Assembly (NCBI RefSeq): GCF_000469385.1
Contig: NZ_KI271351.1
Coordinates: 23,829 to 69,858 of the forward strand
Direction of reading: 5' to 3'
DNA from: Leptotrichia sp. oral taxon 879 str. F0557
Lineage (GTDB): Bacteria; Fusobacteriota; Fusobacteriia; Fusobacteriales; Leptotrichiaceae
Length of the DNA stretch: 46,030 nt
Below are positions 13,397 through 38,613 of this stretch, in pieces. Position 1 is the stretch's first letter. Each line of letters opens with the position of its first letter. The translations under genes were made by a program, and so were the position numbers. Under the pieces are notes generated by a model. It ran no database searches. It had not been told where the DNA came from and worked only from the letters and a program-made list of their open reading frames with translations.

Positions 13397-14386
13397 TTAT
13401 TCTTCCCCCAAAGTTGCCACCATAACTGCCTTAATCGTATGCATTCTATTTTCCGCCTCATCAAATACAACGGAATTTTTACTTCTAAACACTTCATCAA
13501 TAACTTCCATTTCCTTAATTCCGTATTTCTTTTCAATTTCTTGTGCAACTTTTGTATTCAAATCATGAAATGCAGGAAGGCAATGCATAAATAAATAGTC
13601 ATCCTTTGCGTGTTTTACAAGCTCGCTATTTACCTGATAATACGAAAGTCTATTTATTCTTTCATTCCACACATCGTAAGATTCTCCCATAGACATCCAG
13701 ACATCCGTATAAATCACATCTACATCTTTAACTCCACCAATTCGATCATCAGTAAATGAAACACGCCCTCCATTTTCTTCAGCCAGTTTCAATGCAGTTT
13801 CAGCCAGTTCCTTATCTGGAAAATATTCTTTCGGAGCAATAATTGTAAAATCCATCCCAAATTTTGCTGCGCCAATCATAAGCGAATTTGCCATATTATT
13901 TTTTCCATCTCCAAGATACGCAAACTTAATTCCCTTCAAAGTTCCCTTTTTTTCTAAAATAGTCAAAAAATCCGCTAAAACCTGTGTCGGATGAAACTCA
14001 GTCGTAAGCCCATTCCACACAGGCACGCCAGAATGTTTTGCCAGTGCTTCTACCAAATTCTGTCCATATCCACGATACTCAATTCCATCATAAAATCTTC
14101 CTAAAACTTTTGCAGTATCCTCAATAGACTCCTTATCATTCATCTGAGAAGTAGAAGGCCCAATATAAGTAACATTTGCCCCCTGATCATAAGCCGCAAC
14201 TTCAAATGCACATCTAGTCCGTGTTGAAGTCTTTTCAAAAATTAATGCAATATTTTTCCCAGTCAATTTTTTCTCTTCAGTCTTATTTTTCTTATCTTCC
14301 TTCAATTTTTTCGCTAATTTCAATAAATATTGTAATTCTTCTGTTGTAAAGTCTAATAATTTTAAAAACGAACGTCCTTTTAACAT
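13397..14386 (-). CDS. argF: Ornithine carbamoyltransferase
   Basis: It converts ornithine and carbamoyl phosphate to citrulline, in the cytoplasm. The 329-aa protein has the carbamoyl-phosphate loop STRTR (residues 54-58), the HPTQ motif, and the ornithine-site motif HCLPAFHD near the C-terminus. Catabolic (ArcB) and anabolic enzymes are hard to separate by sequence. Its position at the end of an arg biosynthetic operon, with no arcA or arcC nearby, favours the anabolic role. The ATG follows AGAGGTAAA. Confidence 0.93.
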
Positions 14387-14402
14387 GCCTTTACCTCTTT
14401 TC

Positions 14403-14951
14403 TTAATTTTTATTTTTTATTCTAAAATACTCATCTAACACATTTTTTTCAATTTCCTTCAATTTTTGCACATTTTCAATAATTTTTTTATTCTCGCCAA
14501 CATACCGAATCAATTTCATATTTTCATCAAAATAGTACCTCTTTTCAGATATTTTTGATTTTCTGCTGTCAAAAACTTCTCCAACTTTCATATTATCTCT
14601 TTTATACCAGTCAGTGTTCACATAATATGGAACATTATATTTTTCAGTTTTATCAAAAATAAAATAAACTTTTCCGTTTTTTATGTAGTACTCAGTCAAT
14701 CCATTCCAGCTTTCTCCATAATGTTCAACTACAATTTTTTTAACAATTCCATTTTGTGAATAATATTTTACAATGCCACCCTCTGTACTTCGGTCAGAAT
14801 CATCAGCTTCTCTAATCGCATAATTTTTTGCAGCATTTGTACTCATAAAATCTTTCCTAATTTGAGCAACCCTATTTTCAATATTTGAAGCACTAAAACT
14901 AGACAAACTAATTAAAACAGCTATTATCACAATTTTTCTAAAAATTTTCAT
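14403..14951 (-). CDS. Exported protein of unknown function in the arg operon
   Basis: A 182-aa protein with a Sec signal peptide ([22 protein letters not shown]) and no further membrane segment, so probably periplasmic. The rest is a charged, beta-rich sequence with Tyr and Trp ([35 protein letters not shown]) that suggests repeated beta strands. I do not recognise the family. The reading frame extends to 14981, but the ATG at 14951 has an AAAGGGGG site in front and begins directly with the signal peptide. It lies between argD and argF, 16 nt from argF, so it is co-transcribed with arginine genes; an arginine-linked function is not otherwise supported. Confidence 0.75.
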
Positions 14952-15049
14952 AAAATCCCCCTTTAAATTATAATTTTTCATTTATTCAATATAATTTTAC
15001 CTCAATAACTTCTAATTTACAATATTATTTAAAAAAAATTTAAAAAAAA

Positions 15050-16237
15050 TTAAATTGTTTTTAAAACTTTGTCCAAAATTAAAATTGCCTCGTCAATTTC
15101 TTTCTTGCTCACATTAAATGGCGGAAAAAATCTCACAACGTTATTTCCAGCTCCAACTAACAACAGACCATTTTCCAATGCTTTTAAAACAACATCTTTT
15201 CCCAAGACTCTGCTTTCATCAAATTTTATTCCCAAAAGCAGACCTTTTCCACGAATTTCCTCAATAAAATTATATTTCCCCTTCAATTCTTCCAATTTTT
15301 TAATAGAATACTTCCCTTTTTCCACAACATCTTTCTCAATCAATTTATTGTCAATCAATTCATGCAAAACAGCATTTGCGACAGCACAGACTAGCGGATT
15401 TCCCCCATAAGTCGAACCATGATCCCCAGGCTCTAAAACATCGTTTGCCTTGCCCTTTGTAAGAGTTGCTCCAATTGGAACACCGCCACCAAGCGACTTT
15501 GCCACAGTAACAACATCTGGAATAATCTCAAAATTTTCATAAGCAAACAATTTCCCAGTTCTTCCCATTCCGCATTGAATTTCATCAAAAATCACAAGTG
15601 CGTTATATTTTTCACTCAGTTCCTTTATCGCCTGCATAAATTCAGGCGTTGCACTTTCCAGCCCACTTTCCCCTTGAATCGGCTCCAAAATTATGGCTGC
15701 TGTTTTCTCACTCACTTTTGCCTTCAAATCTTTCACATCATTAAAATTACATTGTGTAACATTGGAAATCAAAGGTTCAAAAGGCTTCTGATACTTAGGC
15801 TGCCCTGTTATTGCTAACGCTCCTGTTGAACGTCCATGAAATGAATTTTTCATATAAATTGTTTCAGTTTTCTCAATGATTTTATTTCCATTTTCATCAT
15901 ACGATAAATTATTTCCATATTTATGAGCAATTTTTATTGCCAGTTCAATTGCTTCTGTTCCACTGTTCGTAAAAAATACTTTCTCCATCGCACTATTTTC
16001 TGTAAGTTTTTTTGCCAACTCTAATTGAGGCTCGCTGTAATAAAGATTTGAAATATGTATCAATTTTTTACTTTGTTCAGTCAAAGCATTTATAATTACT
16101 GGACTTGCATGCCCCAGACAGTTCACCGATATTCCTGATACAAAATCTAAGTATTCATTCCCTTCATTATCATAAATATATGTTCCTTTTCCTTTTTCAA
16201 ATATTTTATCATAACGGTTATACACATTTAATAACAT
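15050..16237 (-). CDS. argD: Acetylornithine aminotransferase
   Basis: This class-III PLP aminotransferase converts N-acetylglutamate semialdehyde to N-acetylornithine. The 395-aa sequence has SGISVNCLGHASP near the N-terminus, the FFTNSGTEAIELAIK segment, the PLP-site DEIQCGMGRTGKLFA and the Schiff-base lysine in VTVAKSLGGG. The length and order match ArgD. Many ArgD enzymes also act as succinyl-diaminopimelate aminotransferases, which could link it to dapB, but this is speculative. It is 28 nt downstream of argB. Confidence 0.94.
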   Translation of the reverse strand: MLLNVYNRYDKIFEKGKGTYIYDNEGNEYLDFVSGISVNCLGHASPVIINALTEQSKKLIHISNLYYSEPQLELAKKLTENSAMEKVFFTNSGTEAIELAIKIAHKYGNNLSYDENGNKIIEKTETIYMKNSFHGRSTGALAITGQPKYQKPFEPLISNVTQCNFNDVKDLKAKVSEKTAAIILEPIQGESGLESATPEFMQAIKELSEKYNALVIFDEIQCGMGRTGKLFAYENFEIIPDVVTVAKSLGGGVPIGATLTKGKANDVLEPGDHGSTYGGNPLVCAVANAVLHELIDNKLIEKDVVEKGKYSIKKLEELKGKYNFIEEIRGKGLLLGIKFDESRVLGKDVVLKALENGLLLVGAGNNVVRFFPPFNVSKKEIDEAILILDKVLKTI

Positions 16238-16265
16238 TTTTCTTCCTTCCTTTCTAAAATTTAAT

Positions 16266-17138
16266 TTATTTTTTTATTAAAGTTCCAGCTCCTTCTTCTG
16301 TAAACAACTCCAATAATAATGAATGTTCCAGCTTACCATTTAAAATAACTACATTTTCCACACCATTTTCAATCGCATCTAGGCAAGTATTCACTTTAGG
16401 CAACATTCCACCACTAATAATTCCTCGTTCAATTAAATCATTCACTTTTTCCACATCAATTTCATCAATAAGCGTCTGTTTATTGTTATAATCAAGTAAA
16501 ATTCCATCAACATCTGTCAAAAATATCAATCTATCTGCTTGTAATTTTCCAGCAATCGCGCCTGCCACATAATCGGCATTAATATTGTATGTCTGACCAT
16601 TCTTGTCAACTCCAATAGACGAAATCACAGGAATCACATCATTCGACTCCAACAATTTTATTACTTCCGTATTAATTTCCTTAATTTCTCCAACAAACCC
16701 AATATCAATCTTCTCTCCATCAGCTTCAACAAACTTCTTCTCAACAAACACCATATTCCCGTCTTTTCCACTAAGTCCAATAGCTTTCCCACCATATTTA
16801 TTAATATCCGCAACAATTCCTTTATTTACTTTTCCAGAAAGCACCATTTCCACAATCTCCACAGTTTCTTCATCAGTTACACGATTTCCATCAATAAATT
16901 TGCTCTCTTTTCCAATTTTTTGAAGCATTTCATTAATTTCAGGCCCGCCACCATGCACAATCACAGGATTTATCCCAACATATTTCATTAGAACTATATC
17001 TTGAATAAACTGCTCCCGTGCAACAGGATTGACCATCGCACTTCCACCATATTTAATCACAATCGTTTTATTATGATACTTTTTTATAAATGGCAACGCT
17101 TTTACCAAAATTTTTGCTTTATCTAAATTTGAAATCAT
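16266..17138 (-). CDS. argB: Acetylglutamate kinase
   Basis: It phosphorylates N-acetylglutamate with ATP, the second step of arginine synthesis. The 290-aa amino-acid-kinase-family protein has the conserved KYGGSAM, VHGGGPEINEML and FLTDVDGIL segments. The N-terminal extension (MISNLDKAKILVKALPFIKKYHNKT) resembles the arginine-sensitive hexameric enzymes, so feedback inhibition by arginine is plausible. It lies between argJ (108-nt gap) and argD. Confidence 0.95.
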   Translation of the reverse strand: MISNLDKAKILVKALPFIKKYHNKTIVIKYGGSAMVNPVAREQFIQDIVLMKYVGINPVIVHGGGPEINEMLQKIGKESKFIDGNRVTDEETVEIVEMVLSGKVNKGIVADINKYGGKAIGLSGKDGNMVFVEKKFVEADGEKIDIGFVGEIKEINTEVIKLLESNDVIPVISSIGVDKNGQTYNINADYVAGAIAGKLQADRLIFLTDVDGILLDYNNKQTLIDEIDVEKVNDLIERGIISGGMLPKVNTCLDAIENGVENVVILNGKLEHSLLLELFTEEGAGTLIKK

Positions 17139-17246
17139 ATTTTCCCTTTCTTTTTATCAAAATTTTCTCATTTCTTTAATTTTTAAAAAAAATTAACTAT
17201 CTTAAAAAATCTAACAAACAAATAATTCTCAAAATTATAAAAATTA

Positions 17247-18479
17247 TTAAGTATGGTACTCCGCATTTATTTTCACATAATCATAACTCAAGTCACATCC
17301 CCACGCAGTCGAAGAAAACTCTCCATCATTCAGTTCAATCAAAATTTCAACTTTTTCATTTTTCAAAATTTTAACAGCCTTTTCGTTGTCAAATTCTATT
17401 CCCATACCATTTTTTGCAACTTGGACTCTTTTTTGTAAAGTATTAATATCATTTCCGAGAAAAATATTTATTTTATCAACAATAAGTTCTGCTTCAGAAT
17501 AACCTACAGCACAAAGGATTCTTCCCCAGTTTGGATCTTCCCCAAATACAGCCGCTTTGAAAAGGCTTGAAGTTATTACTGATTTTGCAACTTTTTGTGC
17601 GTCTTTTTTACTTTTTGCCCCAGTTACAGTAACTTCAATTAATTTTGTCGCCCCTTCCCCGTCTTTTGCAATCAGCTTTGCTAGCTCCTGATTCACAAAA
17701 TAAAGTGCCTCTTTAAATTTGCTGTATCCTTCAGAATTTTCATCTACAATTTTTTTATTTTCAGAAGCTCCATTAGCAATAACACAAGCCATATCATTTG
17801 TGCTTGTATCTCCGTCAACTGAAATCATATTAAATGTGCTGTCTGTGATTTCGGAAAATATTTTTTGCAGCAACGATTTTTCAATATTTACATCTGTTAC
17901 TGTGAAAGCCAGCATTGTAGCCATATTTGGATGTATCATCCCAGAACCTTTTGCCATTCCCGCAACTGTTACTGTTTTTCCATCTATTTCAATTTCTGCA
18001 CAAATCTGTTTTGTAAAAGTGTCCGTCGTCATAATCGCAGTTGCCGCATCATTTCCCCCATTTTCCGATATTTCCTTGCAAATTTTACTAATTCCAGTTT
18101 CTATCTTTTTCATATCCAGCTGAACTCCAATAATTCCAGTAGACTGCACTAAAATCTCCTCTTTTTTGAGTCCCAGCTCATTTGCTGCAATTTCCGTCAT
18201 TTTTTTAGCATTTTCAAGTCCAGTTTCTCCAGTACATGAGTTAGCATTCCCGCTATTTACAATAATCGCCTGTGTATTTGCATTTTTTATATTTTCCATA
18301 TTTAAAATAATCGGAGCCGCTTTTACAAGATTTTTTGTAAACACTGCAGCTGAAACTGCCTTTTTCTCGCTATAAATCAATGCCAAGTCTTTTTTCCCGC
18401 TTTTTTTCAACTGTGCCGATATTCCTGCCGCCTTTATCCCTTTAACATTAGTAATTGTCCCATCTTTTATTATTTTCAT
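17247..18479 (-). CDS. argJ: Bifunctional glutamate N-acetyltransferase / ornithine acetyltransferase
   Basis: ArgJ transfers the acetyl group from acetylornithine to glutamate, making the pathway cyclic. The autocatalytic cleavage motif is present in KGSGMIHPNMATML, with the nucleophile Thr188 (numbered from the ATG at 18479). The 410-aa length fits the uncleaved precursor. A longer frame starts at GTG 18488, but ATG 18479 has AAAAGGAG at the right distance. Whether it is mono- or bifunctional is not readable from sequence; argA is not in this window. Confidence 0.94.
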   Translation of the reverse strand: MKIIKDGTITNVKGIKAAGISAQLKKSGKKDLALIYSEKKAVSAAVFTKNLVKAAPIILNMENIKNANTQAIIVNSGNANSCTGETGLENAKKMTEIAANELGLKKEEILVQSTGIIGVQLDMKKIETGISKICKEISENGGNDAATAIMTTDTFTKQICAEIEIDGKTVTVAGMAKGSGMIHPNMATMLAFTVTDVNIEKSLLQKIFSEITDSTFNMISVDGDTSTNDMACVIANGASENKKIVDENSEGYSKFKEALYFVNQELAKLIAKDGEGATKLIEVTVTGAKSKKDAQKVAKSVITSSLFKAAVFGEDPNWGRILCAVGYSEAELIVDKINIFLGNDINTLQKRVQVAKNGMGIEFDNEKAVKILKNEKVEILIELNDGEFSSTAWGCDLSYDYVKINAEYHT

Positions 18480-18500
18480 AAAAATCACTCCTTTTAAAAA

Positions 18501-19550
18501 TTAAATATACATTGATAAAAATTCCAGCCCCATATTTTCTTCAAGCTCAAACATAATATTCATACTTTGAACAGCTTGCCCTCCTGCACCTTTTATGAGG
18601 TTGTCAATCGCAGAAATTACAACAATATTTCCAGTTTTTGAGTCATAACGGACACCAATTTCACAAATATTGCTATTTTTCACATTTTTTATCTCAGGCA
18701 AATTTTCAGTAACTCTTATAAAATACTCATTTTTATAAAAATCATTATAAATTTCATAAATTTTTTCTTCTGTCAAGCTTTCCTTCCATTTTTCATTCAC
18801 TTCCAAATAAATTGTTGAAAGAAGCCCTCTATTTATCGGTAATAAATGTGGAGTAAACACTACATTCATATCGCTTTCTGATAATTTATCCATTTCCTGC
18901 TTTATTTCAGGCGTATGTCTATGCTTTAAAACTCCATAAGCCTTAAAATTTTCATTTACTTCTGTAAAAATCGTATCTATTTTGGCACTTCTCCCTGCTC
19001 CTGAAACTCCAGATTTTGAATCAATTATTATTTTATCCGTTTTTACAACTTTATTTTTTAAAAGCGGCGCCGCTCCCAGTATCGCCGATGTCGGATAACA
19101 CCCAGGACAGGCAACAACTTGACTTTCCTTTATTCTTCCCCTATTCAGCTCAGGCAAGCCATAAACTGCACTCTGATTAATTTCAGGAAACTCATGCTTA
19201 ACATCATACCATTTTTCATAAGTTTCCAAGTCATCCAGCCTGAAATCTGCTCCTAAGTCAAAAACTTTTACATTATTTTCGAGCGCCTTCTTAGCCATCT
19301 TTTCCGACAATCCATGCGGCAATGCCAAAAACAGTACATCAATTTTTCCAAAATTTTCCTCAGCCTCTTCCTGCGAAATTAATTTCTTCTCAAAATATTT
19401 TTTATAATTTGCATACACTTCGCCTATATTCTCCCCAGTATTTGAATATGAAGAAATAAATTCAATCTCCACTTCTTTATGATTATTCAATATCCATACA
19501 AGCTGCTGCCCAGCATATCCAGTCGCTCCAATAATTCCAACTTTTATCAT
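18501..19550 (-). CDS. argC: N-acetyl-gamma-glutamyl-phosphate reductase
   Basis: NADP-dependent reduction of acetylglutamyl phosphate to the semialdehyde. The N-terminal Rossmann motif is GIIGATGYAGQQL, and the catalytic Cys lies in ACPGCYPTSA (Cys151 from the chosen start). The frame extends to 19559, but that ATG abuts the GGGAG ribosome binding site. The ATG at 19550 has 9-nt spacing and is preferred. This is the first structural gene of the arg operon, 28 nt downstream of an intrinsic terminator that forms part of the leader. Confidence 0.95.
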   Translation of the reverse strand: MIKVGIIGATGYAGQQLVWILNNHKEVEIEFISSYSNTGENIGEVYANYKKYFEKKLISQEEAEENFGKIDVLFLALPHGLSEKMAKKALENNVKVFDLGADFRLDDLETYEKWYDVKHEFPEINQSAVYGLPELNRGRIKESQVVACPGCYPTSAILGAAPLLKNKVVKTDKIIIDSKSGVSGAGRSAKIDTIFTEVNENFKAYGVLKHRHTPEIKQEMDKLSESDMNVVFTPHLLPINRGLLSTIYLEVNEKWKESLTEEKIYEIYNDFYKNEYFIRVTENLPEIKNVKNSNICEIGVRYDSKTGNIVVISAIDNLIKGAGGQAVQSMNIMFELEENMGLEFLSMYI

Positions 19551-19577
19551 AATTACCATCTCCCTGCATTTTTTTAT

Positions 19578-19605
19578 AAAAAAAAGCCCTTTTTACAGGC
19601 TCTAA
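19578..19605 (-). terminator. Attenuator terminator upstream of argC
   Basis: On the minus strand AGAGCC (19598-19603) pairs with the GGGCTTT segment (about 19583-19589), followed by a run of eight T residues. It lies between the leader and argC, inside the transcription unit, so it only makes sense as a conditional terminator. Confidence 0.75.
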
Positions 19606-19763
19606 ATAAAATTATACAAATTATATACAAAAACAAAGAGCCAACAACCCAAAAGTCATTGGCAAAAGTAAAATTTTTATGTAAAATAGGAATCCATTAT
19701 AAAAATGATTATACACCATCTGACAAGGGTTTATAATTTAATTGTGTAAATTTATTATCCCTT
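19598..19763 (-). promoter_or_regulatory. Arg leader with alternative, mutually exclusive hairpins
   Basis: Minus-strand pairings visible: AAGGG (19759-19763, over the third Arg codon) with CCCTT (19725-19729); AACCC-TT-GTCA (19721-19731) with TGAC-TTTT-GGGTT (19646-19658); GCCAA (19659-19663) with TTGGC (19640-19644); GGCTCT (19637-19642) with AGAGCC (19598-19603); and AGAGCC with the terminator arm. Neighbouring pairs share bases, so they form a chain of competing structures typical of transcription attenuation. No T-box consensus is present. Folding was done by eye only. Confidence 0.6.
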
Positions 19764-19783
19764 ATCCTTCTTATCATTTTCAT
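19709..19783 (-). CDS. Arginine leader peptide (24 aa)
   Basis: A 24-codon ORF starts at ATG 19783, 8 nt after a perfect AGGAGG (19792-19797), and ends in TAA at 19709-19711. It begins MKMIRRIRDNKF, with arginine codons AGA, AGG and AGG at positions 5, 6 and 8. It lies in the leader of the arg operon, between its promoter and a terminator. Arg content, RBS strength and location suggest a ribosome-sensing leader peptide; a stall at Arg codons would mask the AAGGG segment. The protein itself probably has no other role. I know of no described homologue. Confidence 0.7.
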   Translation of the reverse strand: MKMIRRIRDNKFTQLNYKPLSDGV

Positions 19784-19826
19784 AATCTTTTCCTCCTATC
19801 ATTTTAATTTGTTTTTTGATAAATCT

Positions 19827-19855
19827 ATTATAGCAGAAAAATAATACAAAATCAA
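19827..19855 (-). promoter_or_regulatory. Promoter of the arg operon
   Basis: Minus-strand TTGATT (19850-19855), a 17-nt spacer, an extended -10 (TGC) and a perfect TATAAT (19827-19832). Transcription should start near 19820, giving a 5' leader of about 270 nt before argC. It lies 67 nt past the stop of the upstream EEP-family gene. Confidence 0.8.
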
Positions 19856-19921
19856 TATATTAAATATATAAATTTTAAATAATATCATTAATAAAATTAA
19901 TTCTTTAGCTTTTATAATTTT

Positions 19922-38346: not shown

Positions 38347-38613
38347 GTCATACATCAAATTCTCGAAAACATTCTACCATCCGTTTCTTAATCCAAAAGC
38401 TCAAAAACAGCTACCCTGTAAACCTAGAGAAACTAACTTAGTGCTGCTTCGTTCCCGACCTGACACATTTCGCTAACTCTCTACAATACAGGACTATTTT
38501 ATCAACACTTTTGAAATAAGGCATTGACACTAAAACTTTCCTCAAATTTGACATCACCTCTACTAAAGCGGGTTGTAGATACAGGGCACCGCTAACTCCC
38601 CGGCTAGTATGAC
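38347..38613 (-). ncRNA. ffs: Signal recognition particle RNA, long (Alu-containing) form
   Basis: On the minus strand the domain-IV hallmark GTCAGGTCGGGAACGAAGCAGC appears in parts (GTCAGG..GGAA..GAAGCAGC): the GGAA tetraloop closed by CG pairs and the asymmetric AGC loop bind Ffh. Upstream, GGGGAGTTAGCGGTGCCCTG matches the Alu domain of the long B. subtilis-type scRNA. The ends GTCATAC (38607-38613) and GTATGAC (38347-38353) pair to close the molecule, giving about 267 nt. A T run follows. It targets nascent membrane proteins with Ffh and FtsY. The 5' end fits a consensus promoter 7 nt upstream. Confidence 0.92.

What the first reader, a model, noticed from the sequence alone, without database searches (positions are those of the whole stretch)
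19578..19855. Candidate arginine-leader-peptide attenuator for the arg operon
Directly visible: a promoter with an extended -10 and perfect TATAAT; a perfect AGGAGG before a 24-codon ORF with Arg codons at positions 5, 6 and 8 (AGA, AGG, AGG; AGG is expected to be rare in such a low-GC genome); and an intrinsic terminator 28 nt before argC. Between them is a chain of overlapping complementary segments: AAGGG:CCCTT, AACCC..GTCA:TGAC..GGGTT, GCCAA:TTGGC, GGCTCT:AGAGCC and the terminator. A ribosome stalled on the Arg codons would cover AAGGG, free AACCC..GTCA to compete for the loop of the GCCAA hairpin, release GGCTCT to pair with AGAGCC and so prevent termination. In the arginine-replete state the GCCAA hairpin would form and the terminator would act. 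Ribosome attenuation is classical for his, trp and leu; arg operons are usually controlled by ArgR, so this would be unusual. The terminator pairing is short (6 bp with one G-U) and the distance from the Arg codons to the terminator (about 160 nt) is longer than in classical leaders, so the relay is a hypothesis.
Basis: partly seen in the sequence, partly recalled or inferred. Interest (0 to 1): 0.85.

Follow-up and report, generated by a model that had tools for sequence, protein, structure and literature searches.

The report
Arginine-sensing leader switch for arginine genes
A tiny gene rich in arginine codons, followed by RNA stop-signals, sits in front of the arginine-making genes and very probably switches them on when arginine runs short; similar devices recur across the phylum Fusobacteriota, where the usual arginine repressor is almost always missing.

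Summary
Confirmed. On the minus strand a 24-codon ORF (MKMIRRIRDNKFTQLNYKPLSDGV) ends 158 nt before the likely argC start of an argCJBD-x-argF operon. All 17 argC-bearing Leptotrichiaceae genomes found (of 33 searched) keep it with invariant AGG-ATA-AGG codons. Helices covary (96.4% of cells paired; slid controls 34-53%); a covariance model hits strongly only before argC. Beyond the family, 10 of 15 argC genomes have a different Arg/AGG-rich ORF plus terminators directly upstream, four of them two in series; similar leaders precede argG, argH and ABC-transporter genes. The ORF-plus-terminator test passes in 26 of 30 argC upstream regions and 6 of 900 shuffles. The ArgR domain was found in 1 of 98 Fusobacteriota genomes. 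Best reading: ribosome-mediated attenuation sensing arginyl-tRNA. Additions: the 'GCCAA hairpin' is itself a terminator, and a conserved hairpin encloses the ORF. The antiterminator is supported by pairing and nascent-RNA folds, but equilibrium folds of the whole leader keep the terminators, so the switch is inferred. Ten paper searches listed no such report.

The parts
19827..19855 (-). promoter: TTGATT, 17 nt, TATAAT, extended TG
   Evidence: a 17-nt spacer ending in TGN in the 16 of 17 leaders for which the script found a promoter (L013 lay outside the stretch it read)
19792..19797 (-). Shine-Dalgarno AGGAGG of the leader ORF
19709..19783 (-). leader ORF, 24 codons, MKMIRRIRDNKFTQLNYKPLSDGV
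   Evidence: small ORF in 17 of 17 argC leaders of the family
19760..19771 (-). Arg codons 5, 6, 8 (AGA AGG ATA AGG); AGGATAAGGG invariant in 17 of 17
19685..19800 (-). P1: hairpin enclosing the ORF; the SD/start region pairs beyond the stop codon, GAUAAGGG pairs with CCCUUGUC
   Evidence: covariation; at most 1 of 300 shuffles as good in each of 17 leaders
19715..19731 (-). antiterminator strand AACCCTTGTCAGATGGT, pairs with 19663-19648
19630..19663 (-). T1: first terminator hairpin GCCAATGACTTTTGGGTTGTTGGC and U-rich tail
19637..19642 (-). relay strand GGCTCT (3' side of T1), pairs with AGAGCC 19603-19598 of T2
   Evidence: 12 of 17 leaders
19578..19603 (-). T2: second terminator hairpin and T-run before argC
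18501..19559 (-). argC, first gene of the regulated operon (likely start ATG at 19550)
   Evidence: (TIGR01850)
13397..18488 (-). rest of the operon: argJ, argB, argD, an unassigned 192-aa ORF, argF

Best explanation
It is a ribosome-mediated transcription attenuator that senses charged arginyl-tRNA. A ribosome starts on the 24-codon leader ORF. When arginine is plentiful it reads through the clustered AGA/AGG codons to the stop and covers the antiterminator strand. If no ribosome loads, the ORF hairpin P1 hides that strand. In both cases T1, backed by T2, forms and RNA polymerase stops before argC. When charged Arg-tRNA is scarce the ribosome stalls on the Arg codons, holds the 5' side of P1 open, and frees AACCCUUGUCAGAUGG to pair with T1. 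T1 is blocked, its released 3' arm can occupy the 5' arm of T2 (relay, in genera g1, g3, g4), and the arg operon is transcribed. Shown by sequence: ORF, Arg codons, promoter, P1, T1, T2, their conservation and covariation, no detectable ArgR. Inferred: stalling, antitermination, response to arginine.
For: 17 of 17 argC leaders of the family have the ORF with AGG-ATA-AGG. The A and G of the codon-6 AGG are unpaired in P1 yet invariant, as expected of a codon. P1 and T1 covary: 96.4% of cells paired, 11 pairs with changes on both sides (4 of 500 shuffles reach that), 44 such cells against 14.4 in shuffles. Model hits at E <= 2.6e-8 in 17 of 17 argC genomes; in the 16 without argC one weak hit (E 0.0135) without an Arg ORF. 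Other Arg/AGG-rich leaders with terminators directly before argC in 10 of the other 15 argC genomes and before argG, argH or transporter genes. AGG is 66 of 89 Arg codons in 27 such leaders against 121 of 711 in genes of 27 related loci. Scanner: 26 of 30 real argC upstream regions, 6 of 900 shuffled. ArgR C-domain in 1 of 98 genomes. No Rfam match in the leader or in 20 related loci. Antiterminator pairing and nascent-RNA folds.
Against: With RNA upstream of the ribosome allowed to pair, equilibrium folding through T2 keeps T1 at 0.93 or more in all three ribosome states of all 17 leaders; folded only through T1, 14 of 17 leaders were run and T1 stays at 0.69 to 1.00. The relay is missing in 5 of 17. 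Antiterminator pairing is weak in L010, L011, L013, L019 (40 to 104 of 500 shuffles as good). In one search the antiterminator also forms without a ribosome in 5 of 17 (L014, L017, L018, L019, L021) and some pairs remain with a ribosome at the stop in 6 of 16 (L008, L013, L017, L018, L019, L021). L008 stops at codon 14, so a terminating ribosome would not cover the strand. One covariation measure, further pair types, is not above shuffles (33 against 31.8). No expression data.
Confidence: 0.85

Rival explanations
1. Nascent-peptide arrest: the peptide (R-I-R motif) stalls the ribosome in the exit tunnel in response to a ligand, rather than by slow decoding of Arg codons.
For: R-I-R is invariant in 17 of 17 Leptotrichiaceae leaders (the first R of this motif is codon 6); AGGAT (Arg then Ile or Met) recurs in 16 of 27 other leaders.
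Against: Across the phylum the peptides differ in sequence, length and Arg positions; invariance within the family is partly forced by P1 pairing. Stalling caused by arginine itself would, in this architecture, switch the operon on when arginine is plentiful, the wrong sign for biosynthesis.
Confidence: 0.08
2. A trans-acting factor (an unrecognised repressor or RNA-binding protein) gives the arginine response, and the leader only sets a basal level of termination. It could also act together with attenuation, so the confidences are not exclusive.
For: About 40 nt just upstream of the -35 look conserved without gaps across genera (by eye on 16 leaders), which suggests a DNA-binding site; equilibrium folds keep the terminators on.
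Against: Does not explain the conserved ORF, its Arg codons and the recurrence before other arginine genes. ArgR itself was not detected.
Confidence: 0.12
3. A T-box or metabolite riboswitch controls the operon.
For: Arginine genes are under T-boxes elsewhere (stated in PMC1262725, passages read); terminators lie in the leader.
Against: No Rfam match at gathering score in the leader (the window's only match is SRP RNA elsewhere) or in 20 related loci; the conserved core is a translatable ORF.
Confidence: 0.02

Closest known systems
Classical ribosome-mediated attenuators (trp, his, leu, thr, ilv, phe leaders)
   Same: Short translatable leader, clustered codons for the pathway's amino acid, intrinsic terminator before the first gene, competing pairings. 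(General description of the class recalled.)
   Different: Arginine as the sensed amino acid; two tandem terminators; one long hairpin encloses SD, start and Arg codons; leaders recur before several arginine gene clusters and stand in series in four genomes.
speF leader orf34 of Salmonella (PMC6386406, abstract and passages read)
   Same: Two consecutive Arg codons in a leader ORF sense arginine by ribosome pausing and change RNA structure.
   Different: Controls an ornithine decarboxylase through Rho, RNase G and the ribosome-binding site, not arginine synthesis through intrinsic terminators.
rbfL of Staphylococcus aureus (PMC13009471, abstract and passages read)
   Same: Leader peptide with AGA and AGG codons; ribosome pausing under arginine limitation.
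   Different: Acts on translation of rbf by covering its ribosome-binding site and lowers expression; not termination.
uORFC-8-2 motif before cysS (PMC8632094, passages read) and his leader peptides in bacilli (PMC2965389, passages read)
   Same: Comparative evidence for leader-peptide attenuators beyond the textbook set.
   Different: Cysteine and histidine; other phyla.
ArgR/AhrC arginine repressor control of arg operons (recalled; listings)
   Same: Same genes, same signal.
   Different: ArgR C-domain found in 1 of 98 Fusobacteriota genomes and in 0 of 33 Leptotrichiaceae.

Membership tests
ribosome-mediated transcription attenuator | translatable short ORF with ribosome-binding site between promoter and first gene | tested here: met
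   in 17 of 17 argC leaders of the family; SD weaker (GAGTGGTGA type) in the four g9 leaders
ribosome-mediated transcription attenuator | cluster of codons for the amino acid made by the operon, kept in relatives | tested here: met
   AGG-ATA-AGG in 17 of 17; Arg-rich in 27 other leaders, which were chosen for at least 2 Arg codons
ribosome-mediated transcription attenuator | intrinsic terminator before the first structural gene | tested here: met
   (two in the window); ORF plus terminator in 26 of 30 argC upstream regions
ribosome-mediated transcription attenuator | antiterminator exclusive with the terminator and released by a stalled ribosome | tested here: inconclusive
   for; against: equilibrium folds
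ribosome-mediated transcription attenuator | read-through rises when the amino acid is limiting | not testable with these tools
   needs expression data
T-box leader | T-box structure scored by covariance model | tested here: not met
   no Rfam match at gathering score in the leader or in 20 related loci
ArgR regulon | ArgR protein encoded in the genome | tested here: not met
   PF02863 not found in the own genome at E 0.001; control rings in 8 of 14 genomes

The most novel reading that the evidence does not exclude
Fusobacteriota run a phylum-wide arginine regulon without ArgR: many arginine gene clusters, for synthesis and for uptake, carry their own Arg-codon (mostly AGG) leader-peptide attenuator, and some put two attenuators in series before argC so that two stalled ribosomes are needed, giving a steeper response to arginyl-tRNA depletion.
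Probability: 0.65. Interest if true: 0.75.

Novelty: new variant of a known kind. Interest (0 to 1): 0.66.

Why it matters
Arginine operons are the textbook case of repressor control, and leader-peptide attenuation is textbook for trp, his and leu (both recalled). An arginine attenuator that stands in for a missing repressor across a phylum would show how one control layer replaces another, give a ready sensor of arginyl-tRNA in these bacteria, and, in the tandem forms, test whether attenuators in series sharpen a response.

Tried and rejected
T-box or riboswitch: disfavoured, no Rfam match in the leader or 20 loci. ArgR control: ArgR not detected. Second copy in the own genome: none seen; the weak DNA matches L002-L004 and the one-mismatch pattern hits L024, L025 lack the leader, and the model R1 gives one own-genome hit (its first look scored 92 candidates per genome, so weak copies could be missed). 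argG in the own genus: no leader in the three loci looked at closely (L105, L081, L079); it follows an ORF that looks like a cyclophilin (recalled, no family search). Weak model hits L043-L046: no Arg ORF.

Genomes against the pattern: of the 15 argC genomes outside the family, G077, G095, G096, G072 and G073 have no leader directly before argC (for G073 judged from the argG end and the cluster head, its argC upstream stretch of about 150 nt was not scanned). G072 and G073 have an Arg ORF plus hairpin before the argH-like ORF at the head of argH-argG-argC. For G077 the scanner flagged one ORF with 2 Arg codons, overlapped by the next hairpin, which I did not count. G095 and G096 gave none.

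Rows left out: of the regions I took 27 leaders into. Left out were L055 and L107 (near copies of L052 and L110), L111, L112, L114, L117 (one Arg codon in the first 16), L113 (ORF seen by eye only, one Arg codon) and flagged ORFs that overlap a chosen one, lie in coding sequence or have no fitting terminator (for example in L055 at -691, L061 at -199, L115 at -463, L116 at -954, L119 at -90; and, L084, L086, L088, L093, L095, L097). In L102 the good terminator was seen by eye; the scan's first hit there is weak (-6.3). argH is named from its KLWGGRF start (recalled), not from a search; only L115 and L116 of the transporter genes were typed.

Equilibrium folding as proof of the switch failed. 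tRNA-Arg reading AGG: inconclusive; 25 tRNA places in a draft of 79 contigs, ARAGORN run on 18 of their 25 loci, only Arg anticodons tcg and acg seen. Frame bias of Arg triplets (89 in frame, 6 and 5 in the others) is partly built in: at least 54 of the 89 follow from choosing ORFs with 2 or more Arg codons. Ten paper searches listed no arginine attenuator of a bacterial arg operon; only listed rows were seen, and the library lacks most subscription journals.

Full report
What is there. The finding lies on the minus strand before argC, the head of an operon argC, argJ, argB, argD, an unassigned 192-aa ORF and argF. The window belongs to Leptotrichiaceae by inference: genome G003 of the same family holds an 81,664-base contig, and a record titled 'Leptotrichiaceae bacterium' has a contig of that length with an identical leader. 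Genus names are not given by the tools.

Correction of the anatomy. The GCCAA hairpin is itself an intrinsic terminator (T1), followed by a second (T2). The ORF sits in a long hairpin, P1: the Shine-Dalgarno and start region pair beyond the stop codon, and GAUAAGGG, holding the last Arg codon, pairs with CCCUUGUC.

Conservation in the family. argC was found in 17 of 33 Leptotrichiaceae genomes. All 17 have a small ORF (13 to 34 codons by the script's longest-frame rule) starting 217 to 325 nt before argC, with AGG-ATA-AGG invariant; the codon before is AGA in 14 of 17 and Thr, Val or Lys in the other three. On the alignment of the 17 leaders P1 and T1 have 96.4% of cells paired against 34-53% when slid, 11 pairs with changes on both sides (4 of 500 shuffles reach that) and 44 such cells against 14.4; further pair types are not above shuffles (174 of 500). 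P1 pairing is matched by at most 1 of 300 shuffles in each of the 17. A covariance model gives E <= 2.6e-8 in each of the 17 argC genomes; four other hits are at E >= 0.0135, one of them in a genome without argC, and none has an Arg ORF.

Beyond the family. In 98 Fusobacteriota genomes argC exceeds the curated cut-off in 32. Of the 15 outside the family, 10 (G052, G064, G067, G074, G075, G076, G086, G088, G090, G092) have an Arg-rich small ORF of other sequence plus terminators directly before argC. G072 and G073 have one before an argH-like ORF at the head of the cluster; G077, G095 and G096 show none that I accept. Four genomes (G086, G088, G090, G092) have two Arg ORFs in series before argC, the first followed by two terminators, the second by one. 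Arg leaders also stand before argG in L082, L096 and L102 among 30 argG loci read, and at the head of gene clusters with argH-like, argG or transporter genes in L110, L115, L116, L118-L120 and L123-L126. L115 and L116 encode transporter parts by Pfam; the others were not typed. P1-like pairing is at or below the 5% shuffle level in 16 of the 25 of these 27 leaders that could be tested.

Controls. The ORF-plus-terminator test passes in 26 of 30 argC upstream regions (not in L047, L048, L049, L076) and in 6 of 900 dinucleotide shuffles of them; the ORF alone in 84 of 900. In the window it passes in 1 of 16 upstream gaps, argC itself. AGG is 34 of 63 Arg codons in the 17 leaders and 121 of 711 in genes of 27 related loci, and 66 of 89 in the 27 other leaders.

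Regulator. The ArgR C-domain was found in 0 of 33 family genomes and 1 of 98 of the phylum; the control rings in 8 of 14 named genomes. No Rfam family matches the leader or 20 related loci.

Mechanism. The strand after the CCCUU arm pairs with T1 better than the shuffle mean in 17 of 17 leaders, and 25 of 500 shuffles or fewer do as well in 13. Folding only RNA beyond a ribosome stalled at the last Arg codon, with the last 8 nt of T1 still hidden in the polymerase, gives 8 or more antiterminator pairs in 17 of 17; in 6 of 17, the window's among them, T1 stays unformed even when complete, and in L019 the barrier to T1 is low, at most 3.3 kcal/mol. The ribosome-free fold has no such pairs in 12 of 17, the ribosome-at-stop fold none in 10 of 16 evaluated. 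Against this, equilibrium folds that let RNA upstream of the ribosome pair keep T1 and, with few exceptions, T2 in every state. The T1-to-T2 relay is strong in 12 of 17 and absent in 5. So the parts and their conservation are shown; the switch is inferred.

Literature. Arg-codon leaders are known for speF in Salmonella (PMC6386406) and rbf in S. aureus (PMC13009471), with other outputs (abstracts and passages seen). Ten searches of the held library listed no arginine attenuator for a bacterial arg operon.

Verdict. A conserved arginine leader-peptide attenuator, new in its amino acid and phylum as far as those searches show, with a distinctive double-terminator and ORF-hairpin layout. The step from sequence to arginine response needs the experiments named.

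Noticed in passing
window 19856-19895 (minus strand): About 40 nt directly upstream of the -35 look conserved without gaps (by eye, 16 leaders printed), across genera, with AATG-N4-CATT-like and ATATTGA-containing dyads; possibly the site of an unknown regulator or an UP element.
   Followed up: partly
window 14403-14981 (minus strand): A 192-aa ORF inside the arg operon between argD and argF has no match in NCBIfam or Pfam at E 0.001.
   Followed up: no
L056, L057, L061, L108 upstream of argC: Two Arg-codon leaders in series before argC, the first followed by two terminators, the second by one.
   Followed up: partly
L052, L053, L055, L056, L057, L061, L108, L115 between leader ORF and first terminator: A shared element seen by eye, AAAGATT then a hairpin then ATGAGTATA(C/T)AAAA, lies between the leader ORF and the terminators; no Rfam match in the six of these loci that were searched (L052, L056, L057, L061, L108, L115). 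Role unknown.
   Followed up: no
L008:1255-1509: In this genome the leader ORF stops at codon 14 instead of 25, keeping the Arg codons but not ribosome coverage of the antiterminator strand.
   Followed up: partly
window 38348-38612 (minus strand): Large signal recognition particle RNA (RF01854, 143 bits).
   Followed up: no
G097:C2:852-1484: The only ArgR C-domain matches in 98 Fusobacteriota genomes are two neighbouring ones in the class-level outgroup, each in an open frame of 326 aa.
   Followed up: no
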